Of a stretch of 64,000 nt of DNA, positions 29,532 through 56,516 are shown piece by piece. The stretch's first letter is position 1; each line of letters opens with the position of its first letter. The stretch spans positions 22,529,133 to 22,593,132 of the forward strand of contig NC_089274.1 in assembly GCF_963678975.1 (NCBI RefSeq), written 5' to 3'. This DNA comes from Dysidea avara (Eukaryota; Porifera; Demospongiae; Dictyoceratida; Dysideidae). The notes below the pieces were generated by a model. That model worked only from the letters and a program-made list of their open reading frames with translations. It was not told the origin of the DNA and did no database searches. The translations under genes and the position numbers were made by a program.

Positions 29532-29808
29532 AACTGTCCACTAGGTCCCAGTCACAGTAAATCAATGCAATGATTTCTTTGTAACTTTTTGAAACATCAC
29601 AGTACGACTTGAACGAGGGCTTGAACTTGCCTGATCTCTCCGTGAGATTCTCACTCACGACGACACGCCTCTAGCTTCCTTTTAATTCAAAAGGGGACAG
29701 CCCTTCTTTCCACCACAACTATATTGTAGACCACACCGGTTGATTCAAATGTACGGCGACAAGACAGCGTAAGTAATGACCGAGATAAATTTCTGATTAT
29801 TCCGTAGG
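29532..29808. promoter_or_regulatory. Shared 277 bp region between divergent TAB1-like and LYRM1 start codons
   Basis: The two start codons face away from each other across 277 bp, so this stretch must contain both 5' leaders and probably both promoters. It is less AT-rich than its surroundings and no clear TATA box was seen. A bidirectional promoter is an inference from the spacing. Confidence 0.6.
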
Positions 29809-32800
29809 ATGACAAGGCTGCGCCAGGAAGTTTTGCGTTTATACGGTCAGATTATACGAATATCACGGACTTGGGAAAGTGTCAACGCCGCCAACTCCGA
29901 AACAGAAAGACTTTACATCAAAAATGAAGCTAGGAGGTTGTTTAGCCTTAATAAGCATGTGAGTGATTATGAAATGTTGCCATCATAGATATTTTTAGCA
30001 TGTACCAAATTCTGTTTATTCAAGCTCATTGTATTACTAAGGCAACTATCTTGCTTGCCTCAATGGTAGCTATACCAGTGAAGGTTATCTATGTTGCCAT
30101 AGTGCACCGTGTTTGTATGGCTGATATCACATGTCACTTACTATGTGGTGTCAGCACAGTCTCGCCCCAGACCACGATGCGGTTTAGGGCAGCATACATG
30201 ATATCAGCAGTTAGTCAGACCGCTTTTTCTCCCACGGCGTTTATCGATTAGAAATTATAAGCGCCTGCTCAAAAAGGGGTCTAGTCTGGTTAGAATTGCT
30301 GAGTCGTTCTTGACACCTCCAGGGTGGCAGAGGTGTTGAATGGCCATGTCATCTCTAAGCGCCTCTACATCGTTTTTCACTGGGGATGGCCAGCAAGCTA
30401 TGATGTGCATTCTGCTTAAAGCCTCCAAATTGTCCCTCGAACGCGGAAAAGTTAAAAAAGTTATTTGGAGGCAACTCTGAGAAAGAACAGAGGATGTTAA
30501 ACTGGTTGCTTTTGAGCAGAGGTAAGACATGTTTCTTCAGGCTGTTCGGGTCATTATCAGAGTAATAACACACAGGAATTCCATCTTCTATTTTCAAAAA
30601 TGATGCATGCCTTTGCATATTTTGCCAAAGGCTTTTGAAGTCAATAGACAGGCTTCAGCAAGAATTGACTACTGTTATGTTTAAAGCAGAATCCACTCTT
30701 CAAAAGTTCTGCCTAGCATGTGAGTTGCACAGATGTCTATAACTGATATTTAATATGACTGGATGAACTGTTTTACCATTTGGCATCAATCAATCACAAC
30801 CAATTGATGGTGCTCAGCCAACTGTTAATTTGACTGCTTTTACTCAACTTCATGTTGCATTTCAGCCATCCAATAGTTTCAACAATGTTCCACTACCATC
30901 TTCAGAAGGAACAGTGGAAGCAGCAACAGATGGTTCTTTGGTAGCTGCAGATAAGGATGCAAATGGTAAACTTGGTACACCGTCTGCTAAGGTATGGGGA
31001 AATCTCAAGAATACATGTGTGCATGCACACATGTGAAAGTAGTTTTACTTATCTGTTATATGATTTGTTGTGCCAATTATAAAGTAATAGGCATGTTCTT
31101 AGTAACTGTGTTTATCCTTTATTAACATTATCACAGTGGCCCTTTCCTCACACATGTGTTGTCCTAATGTGTTTTGTTATAGTTGGTAGTGGATTATCCA
31201 TGTGGAAAGGAAAAAACGTTTGAACTGACACCAAACAGGAAGAGGCCCATTATGTCATTGGGAAGACGAAACTACACAGCAGCTGCCAATGGGTTTACCC
31301 AAGCAGAATGCTTATCAGAGCGTATACTTGATTCTGTTACACTTCCAAGTCCGACATGAAATGGAATATATATGCTCTGAACGATACAACTCTATCTTGC
31401 ATAATCCATCACCTAAGAAGATTCAGGAATTTAACTGGAGTGACATTTGTACTGAATTGCAAGCAGCTGTGCCAACACTTTTTATGCTGCTTAGTGGCTT
31501 TCTTCCAAAGGCTGACCAGAGGTTTCTTGCATTGGTTATATGCATGTTACTGAAGAAACGCTGCAAATTCATGTCCCTAGTGCAGACTGTGATGTCCACA
31601 CTCTAATATGGACAATCTGCTAAGAAGCAGGTAATTCATGAATTGAATTATTTCAGTGCTTGTTTTATTCTTTTAGATCTACAACTACTTACAGCCATTT
31701 ATGCTGTGCATGTCAGCATCAATGCTGCAGCCAATAATTGATGGTGTAGTTAAGAATTACAATGCAGATGTATTTCTTTGGGAAGATGATTTGAAGGAGC
31801 ATTTTGAGGTTCATTTAAAGTGTTATAAGAATACATATAAACGAATTTTATTTGATAGCTAAGATTTGACATAGGTTTAATGCCTATCCTCCCTCTGGAG
31901 ATTGATGATGATGACGTCGCAGGTGAAGACAATCATGAAGACGATGATTATTCAGATGTGGAGAGTTGCTACAGTAATACATCACTGGACTCACCCAATT
32001 GGGAGCCCATGGAAACTGATGAAAGTGATGTCATAACATCTGAAGGTTACCAATTTTCATTGACTATACTCATGGTAGTTTGTTTTGTACAGTGAGCACT
32101 TCTGAACCACCCATCAATAGTGAACCTTCTGTGGCACCTGAAGTTATTGCTCAAGGTTTAGTGAGAGCTGATACTACAACAGCCACTGTAACAGCAGGTT
32201 TGATTTTTTCTTACAAATTTATAGCTTTGGGATTTTTCCTTGCTGTGCATAGATGCAAATCAAACCATCAGTACAACACAGAAAGGTCAAGAGTCAGCAG
32301 CATTGAATTGTTGAGGATTTGTCCTAGTTGGGGATAATCTTGACAAAAACTTTCGTCCAAGCCATCAAAGGGAAGATAGACAGACCAAATCTCTTCACAT
32401 TTTTCATTCATATGCTGTGAAAAATTGTGTGGATGGATCCTCCCTATCTGATAAACTGGCTTCAGCAGTGATTTCACCTGAGCTGTTTTTATTGACCAGA
32501 AGTGATATTTCAAAAATTTTAGAGGAGTTTAAAGTATTAATATCAAGGTAAATAATATACTTATATTTTGATGTATTCTTGCTATGATTTTTACAGGGTT
32601 TTAGTGCAGAATGTGAAGAGATTTAGTAACCAGATGAAGAAAGTTACTTGGCATATTCCTTCAAAACATCAGAAAGAAATGGCTGCAAAGTCTGTAGTGG
32701 TAAGTATTGCTATTAATGTTATTGCTAATAATGAGCATATATTTATAGGTCCCGTTAGGTGTGGAGTTCAAGAATGAAGCATACATTGTTGACATGTCTC

Positions 32801-35800
32801 AAATTATGAAAAGTTTTAACAAGTACGTACCAGTGGAGGAATCTGTTACTACGATTAATGTGAATGGACGTGAACATACCTATGACAGCTCTCGGTTGTA
32901 CCAATTGCTATTTTTTCGTGACCAGCTTACAGTTGCTAGAGCTCGGGGAACGGCAGTGCTAAGAGAGCCAGAGAAGAAGCGATTAGAAAGACTCGCAGGA
33001 TTTGTACCTACCATAGCCAATTGGCATGCTAGGATATGCCTGGTGCAGGTATGTCTGTACTACCAGTCATTTTATACTTTTACCATTTAGGTGATTTGGG
33101 GGAGGTTTTTTAGTAATAAATCACATGAGAGAGGTACACTAAACCAGCTCAAGCACTTGGTTAACCAAACTGCTGTTGGGGCTAATCCGAAGAACAACAT
33201 GAAACCTACTGAAGATTTTCTTACTGTTGTCATGTGCGCCCATAAAGCAACAGCAGCCAAGCAGCTAGAGACAGCTAGAAATACAATTGAAGACTGCAAT
33301 GCAGTTGCTGGGTAGATTGTAAGCTATTTTGTCAATATCATGCCATCTGATGGAACACAGCCTTCACCTGTAAATGACAGCAGGTTTAACTATGTTACTG
33401 ATCTGCTTACAATGTGCCTTGTATGGCATGGCTTTCACGATGCAGTGAGAGAGGGGGATGGTGACAGGATTGTCCTGTACTGGAAGCTGCTGCTACCTGT
33501 GTTTCAACAACAAGGTCGCTATAACTATGCAGGTCGCTATAACTATGCAAAAGAAGCATTCTTGCTTTTGGCACAGACTTTGTACCTGTCTGAACGTAAG
33601 GCCACCGAGTTAAAGTGGAATCACACTGTAAACACCAGTGGAAGGACTGGGTGGTGTAATATTTTGTGTGACCTCCATATGGAACACTTGAATGGGACTC
33701 TGAAGTCCATGTTACATAATATGGGATCCAATACAAAAGATTCTTCTGTAGACAGGGCAGCCAAGTCGTCATTAGGGGTGGTATCACAAATTTGTAAAAT
33801 ATTTGAAGCTGAAAATGGTATAGCGGTTGCAAAACCCTTCTCATCTTACCCTTCCTTTACAAAAGATTTGGAAAAGATGACTGCTGTTCTCATTGATGAA
33901 AAGGTGTTCAGCAAACAAGTGGGACATAGAATAAAGATGTATAATAAACAACCATTTCTCACATCCCTAAAGTGGGAGAAAATCAGTGAGTGGGTTAAAA
34001 GTAAAATATTGAAACTTGAAATTTTGTTATTTAATGCCATGTAAGTTATGTTTCACAAATTATTACACTGTTGACATCCACATAAAGAACTACAAAGGTC
34101 ATAAAATCGACAGCCAGTTATACACTGCTTGTCTTTGCTAAACAAAAAAAAATTTAAATAATAAATACCTACGACAATAACCAGTGTTTGCTGCATAATC
34201 CTAAAGTATAGCATCAGCTGGAATTCCATTTCTTCCGGCTCTCCCTGTTTGTTGCACCAGATCCTCCAGTGTCGGTGGTAGTCCCCAATTAATTACTCGG
34301 GAAATGTCTGGAATGTTAACTCCCATCCCAAATGCACTGCTGGCAATTACCACCCTGAGAATGGAATCCATCTTACTGAATTCATCGATAATCGATTCCT
34401 TATGTTCATTACTTGATACTGCTGTAAACGATGTCAAAAGTCTCAGTTCAACAATGTGTTCAAATCCTGGAGGTTCAGATATCTCATGGCCAAGTTTGAC
34501 TTTTACCATGGAAAATACTTCAACACATTCTATGAGCGATTGGCAAAAAATCACAGTCTTTGGTGTGTTTACACGACTAGAGATAAGTTCACTGGCAATG
34601 GTAGTTGTGAACTCTTCTAGAGTTATAGATGGCTTTACAATGTGTTTAATGTTTGATCTATCCAAATTAAAGCCAACCATAATGGTGGCCAGCTGCCTCT
34701 TCACTGTGGCAACAGACTGCTCAGTGGCTGTAGCAGTAAGTGCCATTACATTGACAGATTTAGGCACCAAGCTTCTTAGAGATCCTATTTTGAAGAAAGC
34801 TTTCCGAAATTTTTCACCCCTGCACATAAAAAATTGATATTAAGAGTCAATCACACCTTGTTCTTACCACATCTGAACACAATGAGCTTCGTGCCACTAG
34901 TCTCTGCTGGTAGTTGCTTATCTGCAACATATCACGAAACCTTCGATTGTTTAAGATATTCTCTGGGCTTATATACACTAATTGTACTTCCCCTTAAAGT
35001 ACTCTCTTTACAGCAGTGTTATCACCTTGTGCTTTCCCAACAAATTCTACTGAAACTCCAGTAGATGCAAAGTTCTTTTGGTCCACCATCAAAGCAATTA
35101 ATGGTGTAATGACAACAACAATGCTACCAGCACAACCTTCGTTAACATTAAACAACATATTTAGACACATTGCACAAAAACTTCAAGAAACTTACCAACC
35201 ATAAAATCAAACAGTAATGGTAGAATAGCATAAATCACTGATTTGCCATACCCAGTTGGAAAAATACCAAACACATCTTTGCCTTTAACAAATGCTCGAA
35301 TAGCTTCCTCCTTTACATTAACAGAAAACATTGAACAATGCGAGGAACAAAGAACGACACTTTTATACCTGTTTCGGCTTTAACAGAGCAAGGTCCATAG
35401 TCGTCAATGTACATGACAATGCATCCTGAAAACTCAGACGAGTTCGAGGATGAATTTCATGTTGCTCTGGTGAAGGTTCAGGTGAAGCATCCATACCAAG
35501 ATCCATACTCTCCATAGTGAAAAAGCGATGTAGAGGCGCTTAGAGATGATGTGGCCATTCAACACCTCCGCCACTCTGGAGGTGTCAAGAACGACTCAGC
35601 AATTCTAACCAGACCAGACCTTTTTTCGAGCAGGCGCTTATAATTTCTAATCGATAAGCGCTGTGGGAGGAAAAGCGGTCTGGCCACGCGAGACTAATCA
35701 GCAGTTACTTCATGGGTACCTATTCATAGTGTCATGATTATTTGTATATTTTGGTGTGATAAGGCATGTTATTTCCACAGATAACAGATGAGGATGACAT

Positions 35801-40161: not shown

Positions 40162-43100
40162 ATGTATTTCCAGCTACTTCATCTGCTGTTGGTATCTTGG
40201 TTAACCAGTGTCGTATGTCAAGGTAAGTTGCTTCAGTCACGTCTGTATTAAAACTCGATCAAACATATAGTTATTTTAACTTTTCTATAGATTTTAGTTG
40301 CATAGCTCCCAAGCCTCTTTTGGAAGGAAGGCGACGGTTTGATGGTGTTGTATTCAGAACTAGAAATTACAGAAGTGGTTATCCAGCTACAGAGGCAAGA
40401 ATTAGTGGTGGTGGGTGGTGTTCTGGCCAGCAAGGAGAAAACGTCTTTGATGATCCTTTCCTAGAGGTTGACTTTGGTGATCAAGATGTCATATTTGATT
40501 CAGTGGCAACTCAAGGATTCTCCATAACATTATTCACAACTGTCTTTACAGAACGCTACCAAATTGAAATCGCAGGACAAGGTAGACATTTTCAACACAT
40601 AGCTACCCCAACAAACTCCACTTACCAAAATCCTGCTGTGAGTTAAAAAAAAAATGTCAATGGCATCTCATGTCTGCACATGTAGGTGTTCCCACTTGGT
40701 GAGAGAATTGTTAGTGATTCAAAACATAAGGAGACTCTGCCCAGATCATTTGTTGGTCACTTGTTAAGGATCAACCCATATGAGTGGAACAATGAAGATA
40801 ATGCTTGTACTAAGCTGGAGGTTTATGGATGTCCTCTGCTAGGTAGCATGTGATTAATTATGTTATGTTGAGGTTATGTTTGACCTGTGATATAATCAAC
40901 TTATCATTCAACAGTTTTCCCAATTTGGTTGTTATATCACATGTTCATATAGTGTGTCTGTGTGTGATTTAATGTATAGTAGGTGCCAAACAATGACCTC
41001 CTTAGTTTTTTTATAATAAGATATTGTATGTATGGTTTGTGGTGTTGCCAAACACTTGAATCAGACTATTAACACATTAATATATAAACCCTTATCAGCA
41101 AATCTGTTTTCTGCAATGTAGCTACTTAAATATGTATTAATTTGAGCAAGGGCACAGTCACAATGGCACAGGTGTTTGTATAGACTATAATTTGATATTT
41201 TGGCATTATTGTATTACAGAGTGTCACACAGAGAGTCGGTTAACCGCTACTCCAGGAGTGAACAGTGTTATGATAGGCAGTTCACAAATGTCTCATGGTA
41301 GCCTCTTCAACTTTGACGACACTGAAGTATTCTATTGTGCACCCACCAACCAGGGTAAACCTACCATTACCATCAGGTTCCGCACATCGGTGCTGCTAAC
41401 AGAGATTGGTATACATGGAAATGATAGATTTATTTTTAGCGACCACCATGTGACAAGATTCTCTTTGTCATATGAAAATGATGGTAACTTTACCGAATAC
41501 ATTCGTCAAACTGGAGTAACGGTATAAACATGGTTATTGAATATTGATGCATGTTGATGTTTGCTCTTTTTGCAGATGTTTAATGTTGCAGATCACGATC
41601 AACATTTCTTCGGACTCTGGCCTCCTATCAATACTACCAGTATTAAGTTTACCATTAATGGTTGGAACGGTGAACCTTGTCTGAGTCTGTTGCTGCTAGG
41701 CTGTGGTGCAGATAATGGTAACGAATTTGTGGCTAAATGTGTTTCATAGTAATATACTACATCATGTGCTTCCTGCATGTGTCAGTTACCAGTATTTATC
41801 ACGATAAGGCTATGAGCTATTTCCTGTTATGTATAGAGGTAGTAGTTTGTGTTCCTATTATATAATGAATGCAGGCATGTACTATGCCAGAGGAGGTTGG
41901 ACATGTTCATGTGAGCTGTACATTTTCATTGGAAAATCTTCATTTCAAGACAATTTTATTAAAACTATAGTGCATTTGAAAGCCTAAATCTAACAGCGTA
42001 ATAAACCCCAGTCAACCCCACTGATTAAGCTGGTAAAGAAGCCAGAGTTTAAAGCGCCAATAAAACAAATTACTCAAAATCTGTTTCATTGAGGAGGGTA
42101 ATACAGCGATCTCAGTATAACTCAGTGAAGGATCGTTGTTTCATTATAGAAAACGTATGTGATAAGTCTGGTGAAGTTGTATGCATCAAATTGCAATTTA
42201 TTAATTCATCCCAAAATCTAGAGTGCTTTTAGAAAACAAAGTACATTGCCTTGAAGTTTACGTGAAGGACAATCTGAATATCTAACGAATCCCAGTGAAC
42301 CCCATTGTTTTTTAGTTTAGTATTGCGACTATTGAGGGTCACGTGAAACACCAAACAAAAGAATGCAATTAAGAGCAATATATTTAAATAGTGCTTAAAG
42401 CGCGTCCAACCTCCTCTGGCCACAAGTCTTTCTGGATATTCTGGCCACAAGTCTTTCTGGATATTCTAGTAAGTTCGATATAAGTGTTGATTGAGTGAAT
42501 TAACACTTCAGGAGGTGGTGACTTTGACTAGTCACTTGAAAGTTAGTGTATGCAAGCCAAAGTATATTAACACCTTTCCTGTTAATTCAAGGGAAGCCTG
42601 TGGACTTGTGGCTGTCATTTTTGATGGCCCATACTGGAGTTAGATGCTATTATTTATTTAGATGCTCTCTCTTATCAAACAGTACTGTAGTACCGTTTAA
42701 GTAGGGATTGCAGTGAAACTTTCGCTTGCCACCCAAAATTCCGCCTTTAAAATTACCCTAGAGACATTTTACGTGACCAAAATCACCTTTATGGAATAGT
42801 ACTAGTCCATATAATACATAAAACAGCATCAAATGCAACAAAACACTTACAGGTGGCCAGATATAAAACTTTTAAAAATCGCTAAAACTCGAATTTTAGC
42901 CTCACTGCCTCACTCACTGACCACAGTCGCAAGGCTGGAGGCCAAACGAAGCAGCGCATGGCCACCATTTTATGCCACAATAACAAACTCACCAGTGGGA
43001 TGTGCCTTTTGGGGTTCCGACGAGTGTAGGTCCTTTGCGCCTTGTCTGGCTGCTTGTCTTCTTCATGCATACAACGAAACCATATCGAGGCATTAATTTT

Positions 43101-46100
43101 CCGCTTCAACACTTTTTTTAAGCAGCATAATAGACGCCACAAGATTATTTAAGAGGCTTAGACTGTGCTATGCTACTGTACAGGAGGTACTGGTACTAGA
43201 TAGCTACCTGTATCTTTGCGATAGGTCACAAGATCAAATAATAATCACGTCCATTCTTTATTCTACGCATTATGAATCTATCGATTGAATCCATGATGAC
43301 GCACCCCTTTTATGCTAGGTGATGGAATAGCTAGTCAGTAACCACACACCTTCAAGTTGGAAGGCTGACTAATAATTGATCGAAGTCACGATGACCATGC
43401 CCAATTTGGGCAAGTGCACATCTTTGCAGACTGACTCGAGATACTCTAATACAGCAGTCACCCTAATAGAACAGTCACATGTTTATAGCTAGCTGTACGC
43501 TTTAAGAAAAAATTTGTATATTAAAAATTAAAAATGAAGTAGGGATCCAAGTGGTAAAAAGTAGTGAAACAAGAGATGAATGATAGTAGTTATTACAGCA
43601 TAGCTCGGTGGGAAATCCCTATTTTGGCATTGGACACAAAATAATTGCTATACCATGCCAAAGTAGGAATTTCCCACCGAGCTATGCTGTAATAGCTACT
43701 ATCGTTCATCTCTTGTTTCACAACTTTTTACCGCTTGGATCCCTACTTCATTTTAAATTTATAATTTTTAATATACTAGTATTATTCCTTCTTTGTGTCC
43801 CATTTCTTCTCATAGTGCAAGGTGTCGATTTGCGGTAGTGTGTGATGGCTTCCCTATATGTTTGTAACAGAATTTGTACTTTTAGATTGATTACAGAATA
43901 TCGTTCTTTGTTTCAATACTATGTAACGGGCTGAACATAGCTGAAAACAAAGCATATCTGCAAGTGTAGGCAACTTTCCTTGTTTCACTACTTTTTGTAT
44001 CTGCAATCCCTAGGTAATTGAACCTTGTATTGTACTTGTATGAATAGGTGTTTTTTAAATTTATTTTTTATTCATTTGTGATCATAGCTGCTTCCATGTC
44101 AATTTTTGATACAACATATTGTATGGCTGATTCTTGTGTTTATTTAAATAACGAGTGTTAAACTGTGAAAATGACTAGTATTTAAGGATAGTACAAACTT
44201 TTCAAGTATTGTCTTGATAAACATTGTAAAAACTATCAGACAGTCACAGTAAACATGATGGAGTTTCTAAATGCAATGTCTTGTTTTATTTTGGGAAGAC
44301 TGGATCAACTGAAGAAGGTCATAAACGTACGTAGGAATTTTGAAAAGGGGTTTCCACTACAGCTAAGTGACTATTACATTAGGAGTAGTTTATATTGCAT
44401 CAACATTGTTGGTCAGAACAACGCTATAAGTGTTGCTATCATGTGAAAAACTATTACTTAACTAAGATAAAGATTTAAAATGTGTCCTGCTCCAGATTCT
44501 GGATTCTGGATTCTGGAAATCTGATGTCTCATTCTCAATGTTTCAGTAGTTAAGTGTGTGTAAACTTTAAAGGAATTCCTGAAACCCCCCGCATACTCCC
44601 CTGATAAATACATCTCTTTAATTAATTAACCCATTGCCAGCTGAATTCCTGGCGATTACTAGTTGAATCACCAAATTGCATCATATTACCCTTACCATAC
44701 ACAGAACTACTTAGTAATCATACATCTAAATCCTCGCTGTGAAATAGGGAACTCAATTGTGTTGTTTTTACTAACTGCAATGAAGTTATTACTCAGCAAA
44801 GTCTAAACATTGGTAAAAACCAGCCCAAACCCCAAACAAACAACGGAATCCTAACTAACTATCTACAAAGGTGCCTTACACTCCAAAGAACTATTCTATA
44901 CCGTTTACTTACAGTGCGATCCATTCCACAGCTGGTTTCTTCGTGATTTGTTCCATTTTTGCTGTTGCGCATGCGTATCTGCACCTGTGACCACCATGCC
45001 ATGTCTGGGATAAATCAACCGATTGCTGACTTTACCTGTCTCCATCGATGTGTAACACTTTATTATTAACAACTTGTTTTCAACTCAAGGAAAGATTTAA
45101 TTTGCCTATTATGAAAGGTTACACTTTATGCTATTACATAACAAATGCGCACTAGTCCGGGAAGGATCCTGTTATCCCAGAAACGGGACCCCTATGGGTG
45201 TGTCCACTTTAGCACTAGCACATCAGTTTATAGCGAAGCTAGATTTTATTTTCATTCGTGATTTATAATGCCATGCCACCGTATGGCGGCTACCACCATT
45301 AATGGGTTAATGGTACATATATCTCTTTAATATCTCATACCTCTTGTATGAGATATTATCATCGTACAGTACAATAGTATTATATAGTAGGGACAACGAA
45401 GGTGTGGGTGTGGCCCATGATAGAATATCACTCAAAAACCTGCCTCAATCTCCCCTCATGACGACATGACAGTATTGGTTGGGTAAGATCTATCTCAAAA
45501 GTGCTTTCATATTGACTTGAAACATTTTTGTCAAGTTGCTACAGAGTTACAAAAAAATCTAATGTAATTTTCTACTGCCTGCCTACCTGATGCATTCAGG
45601 CAAGCGTAATGGAAAAGACCCTACTTCTTTCACAGAAATGCTTCGGATTCACTTAAGAAGAAACCTTTGGCATATTGATAGCCATACAATACGTGCAAAT
45701 AGTTGTGATATTGTCTTACTTTTATCCTTCCATATACTGTACTATAGTGGCTATAGCACAGTATGGCTTTGATCTCCGGGCATGCACATTTCACGGTGTT
45801 ATTGTACCAACATATTGGAATACACGTGCAGGTACAGTTCAGTGAGGTGTTCTCCGTTGTAGACGAGATGTCACCTGCCACATCAATCAATCAACCAGGA
45901 AATGGACTTGCTTGTGAAATGGTATGTACAAAGTGTATCTGACTATTGTTCTAGGTGAGTTAGTCTGGCAAATAAGTCGACAGCTATAATATATACCAGA
46001 TCTTGGTGCCATTGGTATGTATCAGTATAGTAGGTGCAGCTGGAATGTAAGTTGACAGCCCTTGTGCTTTAATGTATATAATTATTAGATTCATGATTGC

Positions 46101-48789
46101 TGCAGATCATGATCTCACTCATGAATATGAGAATTGTAGTTATTGGTTTACATATGTGACGGTAGCTAGCATTTTAAAAAGTTCACAAACAAGTAAAAGA
46201 AAGAATTAGGAAGTTTCAACTAGAGTAGGGACAATGTAGTACCGCTGCAATAAAAATTACTGAAACAAGCTAAATCAGGGTAGTACATATGTAGCTTGTT
46301 TCAGTAATTTTTATTGCAACGGTACTGCATTGTCCCTACTCTAATTTAAATTCCTAATTACTATGAACAGTAAGTGACTATTATTTAAATGTTGATAGTT
46401 TATCCTATCTCAACTGAAACACTAGCAATTCATTGAACATTTGGTAATCTAAGAAACTAATCAAGTGATTGGAGTTTTTGTTAGCATACCATCAAACAGT
46501 ACTGTCCAGAGGTAACATTACGCTCGGGAACAGTTGACACTCGTTTAGCCAATTTTCAACTTGCGATTTCTTTGGCATGTGTGCTAACTACATAACTCAC
46601 CATGTGTAGCCATGACACACGAGCTCCTTCGGGTGGCTGTTCTAGTAACCACGTGATTTCGTACACATGACACACGAGCTCCCTCGGGTGGCTGCTCCAG
46701 TAACCACGTGCCTCCATACATACTGTATTCCAGTCATGCGTCGTGTTGAGTCGTGGCCTGGATTTGAGCACTCGCGAGGGATTGTAACATTAGTTCTGGG
46801 CGGTACTGTACATGCAAACAGTGGTATGGTTATACTTTTAAAAACCTTTCTCCTTCCTTCCCACCTATAAAAAGATATACCACTCTTTGCATATTAACAA
46901 TCTAATTAGTATAATCATTGACAATCAAATTACTAATTAGATTACTAATATTATATTGTATGCAAAGAGTGGTATGGTTGCAAGCAAGCCCCGTACAAAT
47001 ATTATGAACTCTTGTTGCAAGGTTTCAGGAAAAACTCCCTTGACTGTTATAGATAGTGTAACCAAGTGTAAATGCGTTGCCCTATTAGAGTGTATATCGT
47101 ATTCTGAGCACCATGCAGCTCCCGTACAAGAGTTTGAATACTGTATATTACATAGTACATATTGTGTGTTGATAACTGTAAGTATACATCAAATCTTTGT
47201 TGTAGTGGTGGATCACAGTGTTGCAATAGATAACACAACGGCTAATGCTGGACTAGTAGATGATGTATCGGTGACACTGACCACAACAGAACTGGTTACA
47301 ACTACACATATGGCTACACAATTGGTCACAATTACACAAACAGTAGCCAGTACTGTTCTGGTGACTGTTACTGCTAATGTAAGCTCCTCCCCATTAACAA
47401 TGCAGAATTCGTCTTCAACAATGAACCCCTCTCCCATGCAAACCAGTTCTGCTTCAAGTTCTTGTTCATCAAAGGAGAAAGACAACACACCAATATATGT
47501 TACTGTTGTGATAGTGGTAGTTGGTTTGCTGGTAGCAGTGATTCTTGTCATTGTGGGAGTGATTCTTTGCCATTACCAGCAGCAGAAAGTATCATCTGTC
47601 AGATCAAAGAGTCCTATTATTGCAGCATATAAGAGTGCCGATAGTGGAAGTATTGTTGTGGAGGTTTCTAATGATCTCTATGGAAGAGAGCCAGGATCTC
47701 AGTAAGTGATTTTCTTAAGACACATTTATTATGCTGCATTTATAATTTTTCTATGAATGATGTCTGCTTTTATATTTCTGGCCTTATATGGTATTATGTA
47801 ATATTGCATGATTATTGCATCACTCAATTGTTTGCATGGCTTCTAATGAATTATAACTAGACTGTAAGGAATCCATAGACAACATCCAAATCATTGGCCA
47901 TTTTTATACTATATTTGGCTCAAGACTACACCTCAGTGCTATGTTTTCCATAATGCACGAGCATACGAGGTGCTTTAACTTTAATGTACGAATTCGGAGT
48001 TGCAATTAACCATTTATACAGTTTATCACAACAAACTAGTGCACACTCGTGATTAGCCTCAGAAGGTTAATTTGTAGCCATTAATGCTGAGTTATCACAC
48101 GATTTGTGATCCATCATACCCAGAATTCACTTAGTAGTGGGACAGGAGGACGAGGAGAATGGCCAAGGAATGGTGTACGTAAGTAATGGACAGTTTGTAC
48201 AGCTATCTGATCGTTGTTCATGAGTGTGGCCATCAATGCAACAAAGTTGAAGGCGTCAATGTCAAACAGCCACTGAATCTAACTTACAATGATGGACAGT
48301 TTAGTGAACAATATAAGACTGAATGGCATAACTATTGTAGTGGAATTACAAACATTTGTGGGTGTAGCCATTAATTTGTTTAATTGCTATGGTAACGTTG
48401 TTGACAACTTTGTTAGTGTGGTCATTCCTGTGGGTCGTGCTTCACATTCACACAAAGTGTGCTTTATTGCCATGAAAAAGAAAATAAGTACACTTTGATG
48501 GAAAATATAGCACACTTAAGCACAATATGGAATATTGATAAAGCACACTTTTCCGCTTTGAACTTAGATGGTATCATACGTTATTGGATTATGAAAGTTA
48601 TTACACATATCTTGCTGTAGGGCGAGTCCTAATGAAGACAGGAAAGATGACAACTCACAGGTACAAATTTATGAAGAAATAACAAAGCAACATGGGGAAA
48701 TGGAGAGTGCAATTAACCCACAATATGGAGAAACTATCAAGCCAACTACTAAAAATAATGAAACTGTCTATTCCTATGCTGTCCCCTAA
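40162..48789 (+). CDS. Receptor-like type I membrane protein with two F5/8C (discoidin) domains, copy A (557 aa)
   Basis: Seven exons: 40162-40222, 40291-40637, 40686-40842, 41220-41521, 41576-41717, 47206-47701 and 48621-48789. Splice sites and phases agree throughout. Residues 1-20 are a signal peptide (MYFQLLHLLLVSWLTSVVCQ). F5/8C domain 1 runs C24-C185 (GGGWCSGQQGEN, FLEVDFGDQDV, then CTKLEVYGC) and domain 2 runs C190-C332 (TRFSLSYENDGNF, then CLSLLLLGC). A Thr/Ser-rich stalk spans 337-432 and one membrane helix about 433-458 (IYVTVVIVVVGLLVAVILVI). The tail is about 100 residues, with NDLYGR (Y495), IYEEI (Y519), NPQYGE (Y537) and VYSYAVP. F5/8C domains bind lipids, glycans or collagen-like ligands; YEEI is the classic Src-family SH2 target once phosphorylated. 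There is no kinase domain. Intron 5 (5.5 kb) is full of repeats. Function is inferred from architecture only; it is not a recognised named family. Confidence 0.85.
41888..42418. mobile_element. Non-autonomous element with CAGAGGAGG termini, copy 2
   Basis: Termini cagaggaggttggaca and gcgtccaacctcctctg. Longer than copy 1 at 25920-26286 but shares the ttgagggtcacgtgaaacacc and gcaattaag blocks. It sits in intron 5 of the copy A receptor gene. Confidence 0.75.
42945..43075. repeat. Dispersed repeat shared with 20225-20345
   Basis: Both sites carry a ccattttatgccacaataa or ccattttggcaacaaaataa block, then aactcac, then atgtgccttttg and gccttg. The similarity is partial. Confidence 0.45.
43517..43775. 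repeat. Palindromic MITE, about 259 bp
   Basis: The arms tatattaaaaattaaaaatg plus aagtagggatccaagtggta pair with the right side ending tttttaatata. Inner arms include gtagtgaaacaagag and cccaccgagctatgctgtaa. Confidence 0.85.
46204..46359. repeat. Palindromic MITE, about 156 bp
   Basis: Long arms agagtagggacaatgtagta and taatttttattgcaacggt pair around a loop near 46275, containing actgaaacaagct on both sides. Confidence 0.85.
46611..46710. repeat. Two-copy tandem repeat, 55 bp unit
   Basis: catgacacacgagctccttc plus gggtggctgttctagtaacc plus acgtg occurs at 46611 and again at 46666 with a few changes. Confidence 0.85.
46877..46975. repeat. Palindromic MITE, 99 bp
   Basis: ataccactctttgcatatta and the inverted tatgcaaagagtggtat close an AT-rich stem containing aatctaattagta. 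It ends 230 bp before exon 6 of the copy A receptor. Confidence 0.75.
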
Positions 48790-51240
48790 TATGTACTTCC
48801 TGATATATGTATTGTGTGCTTGTTATGTACCCAACCAACATGTGCTAGAATATACATTGTATTACTATAATGGAAGTATTGATAGCTGCATGGATGTGAT
48901 GTCACATAATTCAGGAACGGACAGAGTAAAGGTGGAGTGCCATGCTGCTAGTGTAGCAGTGGTCATACCACTGCTACATGGAAACCAACTTCAGCATGTA
49001 CCCCTGAAACCATAAACAAAGTTAATGCAGTTGTCTGCAAACTCAAAGATGTGGAGGATTGTTAAATCTCCACAAGTCGTCAGGGTTGAAGGTATCACCT
49101 GGTATATACACAGTATGCAGCAGCTTGTCTGATAGATTTGCATCCTTTTGCATTGGTTGCTTATTGCATGTGATTTCTTTTGAAATGACAGCTGCATCTC
49201 ATCATGAAAGAAATATTATGTGCAGCAACGAAACACTGGTGGTATATTTAGACAAATCTATAACTAGCTATGTGGTTAATAAATCTGGTTACTGATTAGC
49301 ATGTGCATTGAAAACAAATGTAGCTCTTGCTAGCACATCAGTACATGTGGTTCATAATGATGTGCACTACAGAATTTATAGGCTATATGATGGCTGGTAT
49401 CATACATGGAGCAAAAATTGTATGGAGCATATATGCTTGTGCTTAATGACAAACAACCTATAATTAATAAAGAAGCCAAGTTGTGAAGTAATATGTATAG
49501 GTTCACTAACAGTATTTTGGGGAGAATCAGGGTGATTGGGTGAAAATTTAAGCTACGATACTGTAGCTAGCTACTAGTTCACAACCATATAAGCAGTTGA
49601 AATAGTTGCCAGATTAGTTACTCTGTGTCATGAGTGTTGATTTTTGTGATCGGGTAAAGCATGCAGATCTTATGGTTGGTAGTGTTTTATGCATGAGTAG
49701 TGCTCATAAACACAATTCTAATATAGTATGTTGATGTGCTGAATACAGAGACAAATTTTACACTAGCAGTCTTGGGTGAATATCTTCCAAGAATAATGGG
49801 CTACCTGAGATTAAATATTATAGCATTTTTATGGTTGTAAGGTCATTCTCCAAAACAAGTTTGTAAAATCACAATTAAATCTGATGGTATTTCTTCTGGT
49901 TGTGCGTGTGCATGCTATTTTGAAGGCAAAATTAATTGTGCTAATGTAAAAAAACCTCCCATCAATTTTTGATAATGTACCTTAGGAGTTTAGACCACCT
50001 GATACTAAATCTTCAGGAGAGCATTTTAAGATTGTGTATGCATTTTTAACCCTATAAACTGCCTGAGATTAAATGTGCATGATGGAAATTTGACAGTTTG
50101 GTGTGCCACTATAAGAAACAAGCTTACTGAAGCTTAATACATAGTGTAGTTATTGCTCACATTTTTATGGGGTGGAAGCTCCCCCCCCCCCTAACAGCCT
50201 TAGAATATGCACCGTTTACTAGCTAATACGCATGCAGTAGCTATAGCTATATCAAACTTACCCAACTGATTAACTACTCAGTTTTCAAAAGAAAACTGCA
50301 AATGTTTCTAATCTTACAATTTCCAGCCTATACCAAAATCAGTGAGATAAAAACTGCATTACCTTCCTTGCTATTATTAAGTCTTTGTCCATATCCATTG
50401 CTTTTGATTGCATGCATGCATGCATGACCTATATTTTTCAGGAGCTTATGAGCCACCTTTGGCGGCTCGTAATCTCCTGATTTTATAACTGCTCACTGAG
50501 ACCTCTGAAGAGAGTATGATGCACTGGGCCACCGGCACAGATCAAACAATCTATACTTAGTTACTGAATGTTGCTAGACTGCTATAGTCTTTGCATTTAG
50601 CTACATGCTGGGGTAGACTGATAACATCCTGAAGCTGTCTTGTTTATTGTATAAGTTCATGCACTTATTTGCCATTGGGTGTAGCTTCATCTTAGTTTAT
50701 TTGGAAATCCATGCACAGCAGTGTCGTTGCCTTTACCACTACATGCACTGTATATGGGAACAGGTGTTAGCTTGTGCATGCGTTTTCATCACCGTTTTTC
50801 TAAGGTACAGCTATAACTTTCTACCCAAATTATGCATAGCAAAAGTTCACACAATCTACACAGTAGTTGCCTGTACAAAATCATTGCTGCTAGTTCACTT
50901 TTGATCATATGTACACCTCTACAATGTTATAGGAACTGTTGACAGGTGTTGATAAGGTGTCAAGAAGGTCAAGGATTTGTTCTGAGAAACCTTAAATTTG
51001 ACTTATATGGTAGCAGTGATTTTTGATTTTTCAGTATTGTAACTATACATACTCTCCCCCATACAAATATTATTAACTTTTGTAGTTAAATATATTATTA
51101 TAGCTCTTCTAAAAAAATAATTCCCCAACTTTGACATAATTAACTAAGTGGTTTATAGTATGCAGTTTTGACATGTGTTCACGAGATCAGTTCAGTGCCG
51201 CTCTCTAAGCCACTGTTAGGGCTGTGCCTAGACTAAAGGA
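48790..51240. other. Intergenic region between the two receptor genes
   Basis: No gene recognised. It contains the 3' untranslated region of copy A, a C-run at 50180-50190, and a small hairpin (caggagcttatgagccacc with ggcggctcgtaatctcctg, 50439-50480). It presumably also holds the copy B promoter. Confidence 0.4.
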
Positions 51241-54200
51241 ATGAACGGGATACTTCACTGTTGGATTGTTGGAGTACTGTTCGTCAACAGTGTTTGTGAA
51301 GGTGAAAGGCGGTAGTACTGCGATAATTATGTCATTGTGCGTCTTTGTTCATTTAGCTGCCGATCGTTGTTATTCGCCTACTACTCTCCTGGAGGGAAAG
51401 CGAAGAATAGTTGGCGTTGTACTAAGGGCTAATAGTGAACAAAGCAACTACCTCGCCTCTGAAGTGAGATATGATGATGATGGCTGGTGCTCTGCTGAAC
51501 TTGGAGGAGACATTTTTTATCCTTACCTGGAGGTGGAGTTTGGCCAAGATGTGTTATTTCATGCAGTGGTGACTAAAGGGTTTAGCATAGAATTTTTATC
51601 AAATGTATTTTTGGAGCAATACCAAATAGAAATAGCTGGAAAAGATGAACACTTCCGATACGTAGCCGTATCAAATAACATGACAAACTCCACTGTGCCA
51701 CCACCTGCAGTATGTAGCTGAGGAATGCATTGTTAGAAAGAGTTACATTATTTTCTTACAGGTGTATCCTTTGGACCAGGAGAGAATTACTAGTCTTAAG
51801 TCTTACACACAGCTTTTGACATATCCAATCTATGGTCAAACATTTAGACTAATCCCATACAAGTGGAACAATTATGACTACGCCTGCACAAAGCTAGAGA
51901 TAGTTGGATGTCCATCAAGTGGTAAAGTATACACTAGAATAGAGACACATCGATATAAGCACCGGATATATACCCATCTCAACAGTGTGGGTTGTATAGG
52001 TACAAGGATGCTTATTTATGGCAGCTTATCTGCAAAGTAGAGATGGATCAATTTTACTACATTCAAGTACTACTTAATTTGCTATTTACTACACTTAACT
52101 ATGTCAAATATATTGCTTTGTTTATTTAACTGATGTACACTGGCATATGGCATTGTAACTATTGGCACTAATAGGCTTTGCATAATAAACACATCTTATT
52201 AGGTAATGAGGTTAGTCATTTTAATGCTTACAGAGTGCAAGGTAGAAAGGAACTTGGGTGAGGATGATGGTGTTGTGGTCACAATGGATGGATCAGTGGT
52301 ACGTCACGAGGACCTGTTTGACTTTGATGATGGACAGTCATTTTGCTTACCCAGTGGTGAGGACCACCCCAATATCACCATCACATTTCCTTCAGTAGTG
52401 TTAATAATGGAATTTGGTATACATGGCTTTGATAACACTTTTCCATTTTCTGATGCATTTGTAACAAGCTATACATTATCCTATTTACAAGATGGTCATT
52501 TTGTTGACTACGTCAATGATCTTGGAACAACAGTAAGTTTTTGTCTTAAACTAACCAGGCTGTTATATTTTATAATAGGTTTTCACTGTGTCAGATGTTG
52601 ATAAACATTTCTATGGGCTATGGCCTCCGATCAAAACTAGTATGCTAAAATTCATTGCTAACAAATGGAGTAGTCGTCCTTGCTTAAATCTGTTGGTGGA
52701 GGGATGTAGTGGTAGTGATGGTATGTGATACTTGTATTACTTAATTGCGCGTAACATGTTGTTCTTGTAGTCGTAGAGCACCTAATCAACCCTACTGCAG
52801 GCTTGGTTGACAACACAGTGGAAACAGTGACAATGACCAAGACAATATTTATGACTATGAGTAGCACTGCAATCCCTAGCCCCACCTCCACTTCAACACA
52901 CATCGACCTCTCCAATCAGACTTCAACACACACCAGCCTCTCCACTCAGACTTCAGTACAGACAAGCCTCCTTACCCACACTCCAACACAGACCAGCCAT
53001 CATTCGTGTGATAGTGATGATGATGATGATGATACTGCAATATTTGTGTCAATTGCTGTGGTGGTGGTGGGTATACTAGTGACAACTATTATTGTAGTGG
53101 TGGGTGTGATTTTGTGTCGTCATGATCGTAGAAATAAGAACGACATGGGATCAACAGATCCTTTGATACCAACGAAAAATTATGGAAGTGTTATACACAC
53201 TACTAGTGTTGGAGCAGAGAATGACCTTTATGGTCGGCCAGAATTTCAGTAAGTAAAACTTAATGTATTTAGTGAACACTTACTGAAAAGGGTGCATGGT
53301 TGCTCTTTATAATTGTGTTAGTGGCTATATGGGGATTTGACCTTAGTTTTACTATTTGTTATTTGCTTCATGTAATACTGAACAGGTACAACATAGCACT
53401 TAAACGTGTGTCGTTACAGTAACAGCGGTCATGAGAAAACATCTCTCTATAATATATACATGTGTTTTTGTTTTTAAATGTCCCACATAACAATAACACC
53501 ACATCTTTCTAACTCCATACACTAATCATTCATCAGCTGGAAATTTTGCACAAAGAAGGCCCAAACTCCCAAGAATAATTGTTAGAATCCATTTACTTGA
53601 AGAGATTGAATGATTGTCTGTTAAAAAATTACAGGATAAAATGGTATCCCTTTGTGAAAGTAGCCTTTTGAAAGTTCAAACCTCAGAAATCCCTACAAGA
53701 ATTTAAGCATGTTGTAGCTACGTATAGCACTGTTATGGCATGTCACTCATGGCAGGTCGGACATACATCATCAAGCATCTCATGATTTCAAAGAAAACTT
53801 TAACCCATTGAAGCTTAACACTTCGGTATCAATCCAACGCACTGATTATATATCTTGGCTTTCAGAGCTCTCCTTTCAACCATAGCAAGTGCTATATTAT
53901 GTATACTCCTCATAACGGTGACTAGAATTACACTGTCAAAACTTTACCTGGGAGCATTTGTTATTCCCAAAATCATTGCTTGAATGTGGAAAAAGGGTCT
54001 TACATGTATTTTCTCAGTAGTCATCTAGTGCAGCATTATCCATAATATAATTTATTGTTAGTTGATGGTGAAGCTATTTTGAGCAGTTCTGATTGTACGA
54101 AAGACCTAAGCAATCATAAGCAATTCTTCATCCAAAGTGCAGGGGAAAGTGGTGTGGCTGTATGAGACTAAGTGGGAGTGGTGCTATAATAAAGTAGCCA

Positions 54201-56516
54201 ATTGTGTAATTTCAATAACACTTCAAGAAACAACTGCCTCAGTAGTTAAACAAGCACAAAAATGTAAAGAAAGAGATACTCTAATACAGTGGCCTGGGTG
54301 ACTGTAATATTAGTGTTAGGGTAAATCATTGCTTTACTCAACCTTGTGTGCATGGTTATATGACACTAACAATGTTTTATTACATGATATTGTACTTTGC
54401 GTGGGAGGATCAAAGCGATGCCATGTATCATATTGTCCATACAGTACTAATCAACTGCATAACTGTACTGTATGGGTCATACAGTACAGTTATGCAGCTA
54501 ATTGGGCAAATACAGCACACTTGGGAAAATACAGTACAGTTATGCGGAGAATTTATTTAAGGAATATTACATAAACAACACACTGTAAATCGCTAAAACC
54601 AGCCAAACTAATCCTATGAGTTTGTTCTACAGCTAGGAATAGATTGTATAAACACTTACTGATCGTCTGATCACGAAGCTTTTTAAACACAACTCCACTA
54701 AGACAGCACGATTGATCACATGCGTGACTTTGTAAATCACTAAAACTAGCCAAACTAATCCTATTAGTTCATTCTACGACTAGAAATAGATTAGTTAAAC
54801 ACTTACTGATATCCTGATCACCGAAAATCGCAGCGGTTTGAGTACTAGAGAAAATCGCTCTGAGCCAGACGACCAGGAAGTACAATATAACAGTTAAAGC
54901 ACCACCTATGCTTGTGTGTATGAAAAATACAGCACTCAGGGGTGTCTCGAGGCAAATACAGCACTTGGCTTTGCCTCGTGCTGTATTAGCCTCTCAACAC
55001 GCCCCCTCATACTGTATTTTCCATACACACGCATGGTGGTGCTTTAACTAGAACTAAAATTCATGGAAATGTTTCATTGTGCCAGTGTAATAGACAAATT
55101 TCACAGTAAGGCTTTTTAATGTATCATAATAACTGTTACCCCTAGCAACCTAAATTTTGCATAACATGTAGGTGACAATATCTAAAGTAACTTCTCCAAA
55201 TTTTAAAAGGATAGCATATATGTTTCAGATATGACAGCTTGAAGTTTGTAGTTTTTCCATAGATATCCATGTGAGGGGGCAACAGTTGCCCCTTCTGAGC
55301 AATCACTTAATTGAGGGATTTCAACATGTGCAAAAAACATTCAAAAAGTTATATCTCAATTTTTTACATAATTTGTAGGTGTGAATGTCACAATTATCTT
55401 TCCAATTTTTAAATGGATAGTGTATATAGGTCATAAGATGATGTTTTTGAATCCCATGATTTATGTGATTGCCCAGAAGGGGCAACTGTTGCCCCTCTCA
55501 ATGACAATGTATGGGAAATTACAACTTCAAAATGTGATATCTCATGACTTATGTATGCTATCCTTTTAAAATTTGTAGAGGTGACTTTAGACATTGACAC
55601 TTACAAATAATGTAAAAGTTAGGTTGCTAGGGGCAATGGTTGATTTTTTTCATTATTATAAAATTTGTCTATTGGTATATCCCCAACGGACAAAAGGATT
55701 TCAAGAATAAATTACTTTACTCAACCTTTTATACAACACTAACGATGTTTTAATGCAAGTAAAAATATTATTCTAGATCCTTTTAACTTACAAAATTATG
55801 CTGGCATAATTGGTGGATCCAAAAGGATTACAAGATAGTAGCACCAATTTCCAGTGCCGTATTTGGTCTGTAGGTATGCACAAATCTGCTGTCTGAAAGG
55901 CTAATGTGGAGCCACTCCCACTAATTACAACAAACCAGCTTTCATGAGCTATGCCCACTTATTGGAATTGTATGATATTGTCTGTAGGTATATGCCGAGT
56001 AATGATTTTAATTTATCAGTAAGGTGTGTTCACTTATAGGGAACATGTGTTACTGTCTAATAAGCTTAGTGACTATGTGGAACCATGCCAACTGACTGAT
56101 CATTATTATAAAACCTATACCTGTTAGTTAGTATATAGTTACCCATTCACTTTACTTGAAATATTAGTGGAACATCTAGAATGTATCTATTTGCACATCC
56201 CTTGCATGGTTTTATTAATCCAGGTCACATCTGGGTCAAATCCGGGTCCCCAGTTTTAACTCTGCATGACACAAGTCAATCAGATTAGTAACTGCAACAT
56301 GTATTCATGGTAAATATTTTGTATAATAATTATTTTTATTTTCTTATCAGGACAGCTGAGAATGATGATGATGATGATGATGTATATGAGGAACTGCCAC
56401 AAGACAACAATGGTCTTGACAATAAAGCGTATGGATCATCTATGCCAAGAAATGGCCAGTCTGTCAACGATAATGATGATGATTATGATGTGATCTATTC
56501 CCAACCTCGTCCATAA
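51241..56516 (+). CDS. Receptor-like type I membrane protein with two F5/8C (discoidin) domains, copy B (552 aa)
   Basis: Seven exons: 51241-51301, 51357-51709, 51762-51921, 52234-52532, 52579-52720, 52771-53248 and 56351-56516. Phases are identical to copy A, and exons 1 (61 nt) and 5 (142 nt) have identical lengths. Residues 1-20 are a signal peptide (MNGILHCWIVGVLFVNSVCE). F5/8C domain 1 is C25-C188 (DDDGWCSAELGGD, then CTKLEIVGC) and domain 2 is C193-C334 (DKHFYGLWPP, then CLNLLVEGC). The stalk at 379-414 is built of degenerate 8-10 residue repeats such as TQTSVQTSLL, then an acidic SDDDDDD run. The membrane helix is about 427-453. The tail has NDLYGR (Y491), DDDDDDVYEEL (Y510), NKAYGSS (Y525) and DDYDVIYSQP. 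The gene lies 2.4 kb downstream of copy A in the same direction. Architecture suggests an adhesion or recognition receptor signalling through SH2 proteins; the ligand is unknown. Confidence 0.86.
54584..54821. repeat. Two-copy tandem repeat, 147 bp offset
   Basis: tgtaaatcgctaaaaccagc plus caaactaatcctatgag at 54584 recurs at 54731, and both continue to aaacacttactgat and ctgatcac. In intron 6 of copy B. Confidence 0.8.
54892..55049. repeat. MITE with agttaaagcaccacc termini, copy 1
   Basis: agttaaagcaccacctatgc pairs with gcatggtggtgctttaact. The interior has aatacagcac repeats and tgtctcgaggcaaatacag. A second copy is at 62698-62844, and the similarity extends about 70 bp further upstream. 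Confidence 0.85.
55086..55676. repeat. Palindromic element, about 590 bp
   Basis: The arms start taatagacaaatttcacag and end aaatttgtctattg. Inner pairs include cccctagcaacctaa with ttaggttgctagggg, and gggcaacagttgcccc with ggggcaactgttgcccc, which is itself palindromic. In intron 6 of copy B. Confidence 0.8.

What the first reader, a model, noticed from the sequence alone, without database searches (positions are those of the whole stretch)
40162..56516. Tandem pair of undescribed discoidin-domain receptors with SH2-type tyrosine motifs
Both genes encode signal peptide, two F5/8C domains, Thr/Ser stalk, one membrane helix and a tail with YEEI or YEEL. The layout recalls discoidin-domain receptors or neuropilins but has no kinase or CUB domains. 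The tail motifs suggest coupling to Src-family or other SH2 proteins after phosphorylation. Clustered, duplicated surface receptors are candidates for adhesion or self/non-self recognition.
Basis: partly seen in the sequence, partly recalled or inferred. Interest (0 to 1): 0.8.

Follow-up and report, generated by a model that had tools for sequence, protein, structure and literature searches.

The report
Clustered discoidin receptors with tyrosine tails
An animal genome carries a cluster of related, apparently unnamed cell-surface receptors that pair coagulation-factor-type (discoidin) domains outside the cell with tyrosine signalling motifs inside; the two genes noticed are part of a larger family, two of whose members carry a motif that resembles those of immune receptors.

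Summary
The window holds two seven-exon genes, 40162-48789 and 51241-56516, with identical intron phases. Each encodes a signal peptide, two F5/8C domains, an S/T-rich stalk, one membrane helix and a tail with YEEI or YEEL. They are not an isolated pair. A degraded third copy and two larger opposite-strand genes with four F5/8C domains each lie within 70 kb, beyond the window. Four more F5/8C places of the family lie 2.15-2.4 Mb away on the same contig; two were read further. NDLY recurs in 5 of 5 short-type membrane exons read. The large genes carry paired Yxx[IL] motifs, one a strict ITAM pattern. The genome encodes an SHP-2-like phosphatase and a Src-type kinase. There is no kinase, CUB or LCCL match in the window genes. 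Best reading: recognition/adhesion receptors without a kinase that recruit SH2/PTB proteins, working like DCBLD1/2 but with a different ectodomain. Self/non-self recognition stays open: dN/dS between paralogues is below 1 where computable, and no polymorphism, transcript or ligand data exist. That the organism is a sponge was not tested.

The parts
40162..40222 (+). gene 1 exon 1, signal peptide MYFQLLHLLLVSWLTSVVCQ
   Evidence: GTAAGT donor, phase 1; hydrophobic N-terminus read by eye, no signal-peptide program was run
40291..40637 (+). gene 1 exon 2, F5/8C alpha domain first part
40686..40842 (+). gene 1 exon 3, F5/8C alpha domain second part
41220..41521 (+). gene 1 exon 4, F5/8C beta domain first part
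41576..41717 (+). gene 1 exon 5, F5/8C beta domain second part
47206..47701 (+). gene 1 exon 6: S/T-rich stalk, membrane helix (47493-47570), juxtamembrane NDLYG (47670-47684)
48621..48789 (+). gene 1 exon 7: tail with YEEI (48670-48681), NPQY (48715-48726), C-terminal YAVP (48775-48786), stop
51241..51301 (+). gene 2 exon 1, signal peptide MNGILHCWIVGVLFVNSVCE
   Evidence: chosen among candidates, same length and phase as gene 1 exon 1
51357..51709 (+). gene 2 exon 2, F5/8C alpha domain first part
51762..51921 (+). gene 2 exon 3, F5/8C alpha domain second part
52234..52532 (+). gene 2 exon 4, F5/8C beta domain first part
52579..52720 (+). gene 2 exon 5, F5/8C beta domain second part
52771..53248 (+). 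gene 2 exon 6: S/T-rich stalk, membrane helix (53040-53117), juxtamembrane NDLYG (53220-53234)
56351..56516 (+). gene 2 exon 7: tail with YEEL (56385-56396), C-terminal YSQP (56496-56507), stop

Best explanation
The two genes are members of a clustered family of type I cell-surface receptors. Each ectodomain is built from an alpha-beta pair of F5/8C domains (the larger genes have two pairs) on an S/T-rich, probably glycosylated stalk, with one membrane helix and no catalytic domain found. The proposed mechanism is that ligand or cell-cell contact clusters the receptors, Src-type kinases phosphorylate tail tyrosines, and SH2 and PTB proteins dock: Src-type SH2 on YEE[IL] (preference recalled), Crk-type SH2 on the C-terminal YxxP, PTB proteins on NPxY (recalled), and a tandem-SH2 protein (SHP-2 or a Syk-like kinase) on the paired Yxx[IL] motifs of the two large genes. 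Shown here: gene structure, domains, family, clustering, motif recurrence, and presence in the genome of a Src-type kinase and an SHP-2-like phosphatase. Inferred: phosphorylation, binding partners, ligand and biological role.
For: Gene models with matching intron phases. F5/8C matches in 12 of 12 domains tested of the four gene models, 8 of 12 over the curated cut-off when cut out singly. L035 and L036 at C3:24.97 and 24.85 Mb show the same domain order, and splice sites of the same phases are available at the junctions examined. NDLY recurs in 5 of 5 short-type membrane exons read (genes 1 and 2, degraded gene 3, L035, L036); NPxYG is in gene 1 and L035. The long-type tails share [ED]NPMYE, a paired Yxx[IL]/YxKL and TYE[VD]L, with an excess of Yxx[ILV] over shuffles (P about 0.001 each), a strict ITAM pattern in gene B (in 0.43% of shuffles), a loose one in gene A (2.9%) and one ITIM-consensus match in gene A, LPYFEV, for which no chance control was run. 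dN/dS below 1 in all regions where computable. 133 exon-level SH2 matches in the genome, 0 of 14 control genomes; an SHP-2 relative at 7.5e-179 and a Src relative at 6e-154. Precedent: DCBLD1/2 YxxP tails bind CRKL SH2 after Fyn/Abl phosphorylation (PMC6029619, passages).
Against: No transcript, protein or phosphorylation data. Counts of aligned tyrosines alone are not beyond what realigned shuffles give (3 or more pairs in 586 of 2000 for genes 1 and 2; 4 or more in 172 of 2000 for A and B), although the alignment scores beat 2000 of 2000 shuffles in both cases. At least one YxxP occurs in 36% of shuffled gene 1 tails, and two or more in 5.6% of shuffled gene 2 tails. Genes 1 and 2 have no ITAM pattern. 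The tail of L036 was not found in the 9 kb read, and the stalk and last junctions of L035 are unresolved. Tails of A and B were not scanned against Pfam.
Confidence: 0.6

Rival explanations
1. Self/non-self or immune recognition locus: the cluster encodes receptors whose ectodomains differ among individuals and whose ITAM-like and SHP-2-docking tails drive fusion or rejection.
For: Clustered, duplicated, mixed orientation with a degraded copy. Segmental homogenisation between genes A and B (dS 0.15 and 0.10 in domains 3 and 4 against 0.97-1.62 in the other six regions; two blocks of 91% DNA identity that include the introns inside them). ITAM pattern in B, a loose one and an ITIM-consensus match in A, SHP-2-like phosphatase. 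A review describes ITAM/ITIM motifs and signalling in Hydractinia and Botryllus allorecognition and no shared candidate proteins among sponges, cnidarians and ascidians (PMC12065747, passages).
Against: dN/dS is below 1 in every region where it could be computed, lowest in the outer domains of A/B (0.13-0.18). No polymorphism data. The main text of the A. queenslandica graft transcriptome paper holds none of the terms coagulation factor, discoidin, immunoglobulin, scavenger or tyrosine kinase (PMC5450542, term search). The species is unverified.
Confidence: 0.15
2. Cell-matrix or cell-cell adhesion molecules whose tyrosine motifs mainly serve endocytic sorting (YxxPhi to AP-2, NPxY to clathrin adaptors) rather than kinase signalling.
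For: YxxPhi motifs in 5 of 5 tails tabulated and NPxY in 4 of 5 (the L035 tail is partial). The reading of these as sorting signals is recalled, not tested.
Against: YEE[IL] and the ITAM spacing are not needed for sorting; several spaced tyrosines in acidic or polar tails look like docking sites (inference).
Confidence: 0.18
3. True discoidin-domain receptors, or a kinase-less derivative of DDR, that bind collagen.
For: DDR2 discoidin domains match the alpha and beta profiles (2.4e-11 and 2.8e-5); for beta, DDR2 is level with single neuropilin-2 (1.6e-5) and factor V (3.9e-5) domains.
Against: For alpha, single-domain chains of CASPR2 (1.8e-19), lactadherin (7.4e-17), neuropilin-2 (1.2e-16) and factor V (2.6e-16) match better. 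No kinase domain match. The confidence was raised from 0.05 to 0.08 after rechecking single-domain rather than multi-domain E-values.
Confidence: 0.08

Closest known systems
DCBLD1/DCBLD2 (ESDN)
   Same: Single-pass receptors with an F5/8C domain, and a tail carrying tyrosine motifs that SH2 proteins bind after Src/Abl-type phosphorylation (PMC6029619, passages); both window genes end in or next to a YxxP
   Different: No CUB or LCCL domain matched; two or four F5/8C domains; one or two YxxP instead of seven or eight; extra YEE[IL], NPxY and NDLY motifs
Neuropilin-1/2
   Same: Tandem F5/8C pair (b1b2; two-domain chains match alpha at about 3e-31, a single b1 domain at 1.2e-16), single membrane helix (neuropilin's recalled)
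   Different: No CUB domain matched; tyrosine-rich tail instead of a short PDZ-binding tail (neuropilin tail recalled)
Discoidin-domain receptors DDR1/DDR2
   Same: F5/8C ectodomain, membrane helix
   Different: No kinase domain matched; weaker alpha match, level beta match
CASPR2, lactadherin, coagulation factors V/VIII
   Same: Closest single-domain profile matches for alpha (1.8e-19, 7.4e-17, 2.6e-16); CASPR2 is also the best hit of gene 1 alone (5.2e-7)
   Different: Other architectures: secreted, or with laminin-G/EGF domains (recalled); no such domains matched here
ITAM-bearing immune receptors and Hydractinia/Botryllus allorecognition receptors
   Same: Gene B has YxxI-x8-YxxL, gene A YxxL-x11-YxxL; clustered receptor genes
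   Different: F5/8C ectodomains rather than Ig-like ones (recalled); no functional or polymorphism evidence

Membership tests
F5/8C (discoidin) domain proteins | Significant match to the F5_F8_type_C profile | tested here: met
   PF00754 in 12 of 12 domains of four gene models, E 1.7e-9 to 4.6e-4; 8 of 12 above the curated cut-off when cut out singly; whole genes 1 and 2 above it
Discoidin-domain receptor (DDR) | Intracellular tyrosine kinase domain | tested here: not met
   No kinase family listed for either window protein at E up to 10 (filters drop most matches above 0.1)
Discoidin-domain receptor (DDR) | Collagen binding | not testable with these tools
   No binding data
Neuropilin | CUB domains before the F5/8C pair | tested here: not met
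   No CUB match listed
DCBLD1/2 | CUB and LCCL domains | tested here: not met
   Neither listed
DCBLD1/2 | Multiple YxxP tail motifs | tested here: inconclusive
   Gene 1 one, gene 2 two YxxP; reached in 36% and 5.6% of shuffles
ITAM receptor | Yxx[IL] x6-8 Yxx[IL] in the tail | tested here: inconclusive
   Met strictly by gene B, loosely (x11) by gene A, not by genes 1 and 2
ITAM receptor | Docks a tandem-SH2 kinase (Syk family) when phosphorylated | not testable with these tools
   No binding assay; a Syk-type gene was not sought here; a Syk-family kinase of Amphimedon is used as outgroup in PMC9601881 (passages)
Allorecognition locus | Extreme polymorphism co-segregating with fusion/rejection | not tested
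   Only one assembly is held

The most novel reading that the evidence does not exclude
C3:22.57-22.64 Mb (with related genes at 24.79-24.97 Mb) is a receptor complex for self/non-self or microbe recognition in an early-branching animal: alpha-beta F5/8C ectodomains reshuffled by conversion and read out through ITAM-like and SHP-2-docking tails, that is, immune-type tyrosine signalling on a discoidin instead of an immunoglobulin ectodomain.
Probability: 0.13. Interest if true: 0.88.

Novelty: new variant of a known kind. Interest (0 to 1): 0.62.

Why it matters
If the tails work as proposed, this animal couples factor V/neuropilin-type ectodomains to Src/SHP-2/Crk-type phosphotyrosine signalling without a receptor kinase, in a duplicating gene family. 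A recent review calls the mechanisms of invertebrate allorecognition a mystery, with no candidate proteins shared among sponges, cnidarians and ascidians (PMC12065747, passages). If the species is a sponge, a mapped cluster with ITAM-like members gives a concrete locus to resequence across fusing and rejecting individuals.

Tried and rejected
True DDR identity was judged unlikely: no kinase match and a weaker alpha profile match, though the beta match is level with neuropilin. 'Tandem pair only' was rejected by the neighbourhood search. Strong statistics from tyrosine counts were rejected after the realigned-shuffle control. Diversifying selection was looked for by NG86 between paralogues and not found; dS is saturated in two of six regions of genes 1/2 and high elsewhere, and paralogues are not alleles, so this is a weak test. 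Signal exons for genes A and B were sought and not settled. A TMEM154 match to the stalk and helix of gene 2 (5.2e-5, 23.6 bits, under the cut-off of 30.3) was taken as compositional and not pursued. tRNA and Rfam scans of the window found nothing. Literature: the listings of full-text searches (20 of 63 shown; 8 of 8; 15 of 112; 12 of 185; 2 of 2; 12 of 12) show no title or abstract start that names such a family; searches returned nothing, probably because 'F5/8' cannot be typed.

Genome search was busy in most tries. Answered calls are 19, 44, 100 and 116, and they score only the best candidates. A planned search with an L036 query did not complete, nor was the stalk/tail query. So the family size is a lower bound, and its restriction to C3 is not established.
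Full report
What is there. The window lies at G000:C3:22529133-22593132 in a 550.8 Mb, 108-contig genome. On the plus strand, gene 1 (40162-48789) and gene 2 (51241-56516) each have seven coding exons, GT-AG introns and phases 1-0-1-0-1-2. They encode 557 and 552 aa: signal peptide (by eye), F5/8C alpha domain, F5/8C beta domain, S/T/P-rich stalk (43 and 44% S/T/P), membrane helix and a tail of 99 and 98 residues. Identity between the two is 51% and 50% in the domains, 62% in the helix, 37% in the stalk and 31% in the tail. Pfam finds F5_F8_type_C in each protein and lists no kinase, CUB or LCCL. Cut out singly, three of the four domains pass the curated cut-off and the fourth has E=8.2e-6.

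More than a pair. I fetched the flanks of the window within C3:22479133-22688000 and searched the whole stretch with both proteins. In the 90 kb before gene 1 no match is better than E=0.8. Downstream lie a third plus-strand copy with an in-frame stop and frame breaks, and two minus-strand genes, A (C3:22639035-22630173) and B (C3:22623511-22612045). With the phase of an unsettled signal exon assumed, their exons join into open frames of 974 and 951 residues. Each has four F5/8C domains (8 of 8 match, 5 of 8 above the cut-off), an S/T-rich linker after the second domain, a membrane helix and a tail. Their phases, 1 (assumed)-0-1-0-1 then 1-0-1-0-1-2-2, show the alpha-beta cassette used twice. 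B's membrane-exon donor is weak (AAA|GTATTG). Whole-genome searches with the gene 1 ectodomain and with domains 1-2 of gene B gave 14 and 13 exon matches, all on C3, with 20 and 22 candidates scored. They added places at 24.79, 24.85, 24.87 and 24.97 Mb. Two of these were read further: L036 and L035 show alpha then beta domains and a membrane exon, and sites of the same phases are available at the junctions examined. The 24.79 Mb copy (L033) is 97.3% identical to the 24.85 Mb copy over 3.2 kb, so it is a recent duplicate or an assembly duplicate. The 24.87 Mb copy (L049) is more distant; its membrane exon was not read. The PF00754 family search (20 candidates scored) found five matches; one is gene A, and the other four, on C8, C9 (two) and C10, were not analysed. 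The two on C9 look laminin-like by eye from EGF-type repeats.

Tails. NDLY sits just inside the membrane in 5 of 5 short-type genes whose membrane exon was read (genes 1 and 2, degraded gene 3, L035, L036), and in neither A nor B. NPxYG is in gene 1 and L035, and [ED]NPMYE in both A and B. YEE[IL] is in genes 1 and 2. A YxxP lies at the C-terminus of both: YAVP and YSQP. Gene B has YARI-x8-YNKL, a strict ITAM pattern (0.43% of shuffles). Gene A has YSKL-x11-YQKL (2.9% of shuffles for the loose pattern) and one ITIM-consensus match, LPYFEV (no control run). Yxx[ILV] counts are in excess in A (5) and B (4), P about 0.001 each, marginal in gene 2 (3, P 0.02) and not in gene 1 (1, P 0.71). Against over-reading: when shuffled tails are realigned, as many tyrosine pairs as observed occur in 586 of 2000 trials for genes 1 and 2 and in 172 of 2000 for A and B. 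Only the alignment score is beyond 2000 of 2000 shuffles in each case. With the alignment held fixed and tyrosines placed at random, the observed pairs are reached in 227 of 100,000 and 17 of 200,000 trials, but that control favours the alignment it was made on.

Evolution. Between A and B, synonymous divergence is 0.15 and 0.10 in domains 3 and 4 but 0.97-1.62 in the other six regions. Two blocks of 696 and 540 bases, each with the intron inside it, are 91% identical; the long intron between the blocks gave one further match, 148 bases at 72%. This is a recent conversion or segmental exchange. dN/dS is 0.13-0.57 in A/B and 0.27-0.54 in the four of six regions computable in genes 1/2, which suggests average purifying selection. 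There is no sign of diversifying selection between paralogues, which does not speak to alleles.

Relatives. Gene 1 alone matches CASPR2's discoidin domain best among solved structures (5.2e-7). Profiles of the alpha (8 rows) and beta (6 rows) domains match two-domain chains of factor V, with neuropilin and factor VIII near, at the lowest E-values (alpha 1.2e-35 for factor V), but those chains count two domains. Among single-domain chains alpha prefers CASPR2 (1.8e-19), lactadherin, neuropilin-2 and factor V (7e-17 to 3e-16) over DDR2 (2.4e-11). For beta, neuropilin-2 (1.6e-5), DDR2 (2.8e-5) and factor V (3.9e-5) are level, and retinoschisin is slightly ahead (3.1e-6). Mechanistically the nearest known receptors are DCBLD1/2, whose YxxP tails bind the CRKL SH2 domain after Fyn or Abl phosphorylation (PMC6029619, passages). 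Crk-type SH2 specificity for YxxP predates animals, and a Crk orthologue is reported in Amphimedon (PMC5043372, passages). Sources disagree on two relevant kinases. One places DDR in bilaterians and Syk in vertebrates (PMC8662651, passages). Another reports DDR orthologues in sponges and ctenophores (PMC6485061, passages), and another uses a Syk-family kinase of Amphimedon as outgroup (PMC9601881, passages).

Signalling partners. The genome gives 133 exon-level SH2 matches from 150 candidates scored of 173, and none in 14 control genomes. One uninterrupted 598-aa frame has two SH2 domains and a phosphatase domain and is closest to SHP-2/PTPN11 (7.5e-179). One uninterrupted 395-aa frame with SH2 and kinase is closest to Src (6e-154). 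Fourteen SH2 matches lie on C13:16.66-17.59 Mb, each in an open frame of 388-426 aa; only one was read. Crk, Syk and PTB genes were not sought.

Mechanism proposed. Contact or ligand clusters the receptors; Src-type kinases phosphorylate the tail; SH2 proteins dock on YEE[IL], YxxP and the paired Yxx[IL] motifs, and PTB proteins on NPxY. The large genes would act as ITAM-like or SHP-2-docking receptors. Gene structure, family, motif recurrence and two partner genes are shown; phosphorylation, binding, ligand and role are inferred.

Novelty. No named family with this architecture appeared in the listings of the paper searches (three of the six listings were partial, and 39 and 60 returned nothing, probably because of how 'F5/8' is written). 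I rate it a new variant of a known kind. The self/non-self reading remains possible but untested.

Noticed in passing
window 28860-29540 (-) and 21168-21536 (-): The first frame matches TAB1 structures (best 2.4e-4; no convincing Pfam match); the second carries a PP2C domain at 5.1e-24. Probably exons of one TAB1-like gene.
   Followed up: partly
window 10137-16210 (+): LTR-retrotransposon-like stretch: zinc-knuckle and RT-like frames by eye (the RT-like piece tested had no Pfam match), integrase core rve 1.3e-17.
   Followed up: no
window 2137-2847 (-) and 7814-8683 (-): Reverse transcriptase fragment (RVT_1, 2.2e-20) and a DDE_1 transposase fragment (1.9e-11).
   Followed up: no
window 32749-34041 (+) and 34204-34839 (-): DUF6589 fragments next to a helicase C-terminal domain in opposite orientation, perhaps a mobile element.
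   Followed up: no
window 6641-7720 (+): Ulp1-like C48 peptidase reading frame (1.2e-5).
   Followed up: no
window 43520-43765 and 46214-46350: Inverted repeats (arms 111 nt at 93% and 62 nt at 92%) inside gene 1's 5.5 kb fifth intron, perhaps small mobile elements that enlarged it.
   Followed up: no
G000:C13:16.66-17.59 Mb: Fourteen SH2 matches, each in an open frame of 388-426 aa; the one read (L051) is a Src-type SH2-kinase frame without introns, suggesting a tandem expansion of Src-like kinases.
   Followed up: partly
L050:420-2216 (-): SHP-2-like tandem-SH2 phosphatase in one uninterrupted frame of 598 aa.
   Followed up: yes
L035:8524-8957: Long array of a short tandem repeat, read as MQRPV or SDAAA depending on frame.
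   Followed up: no
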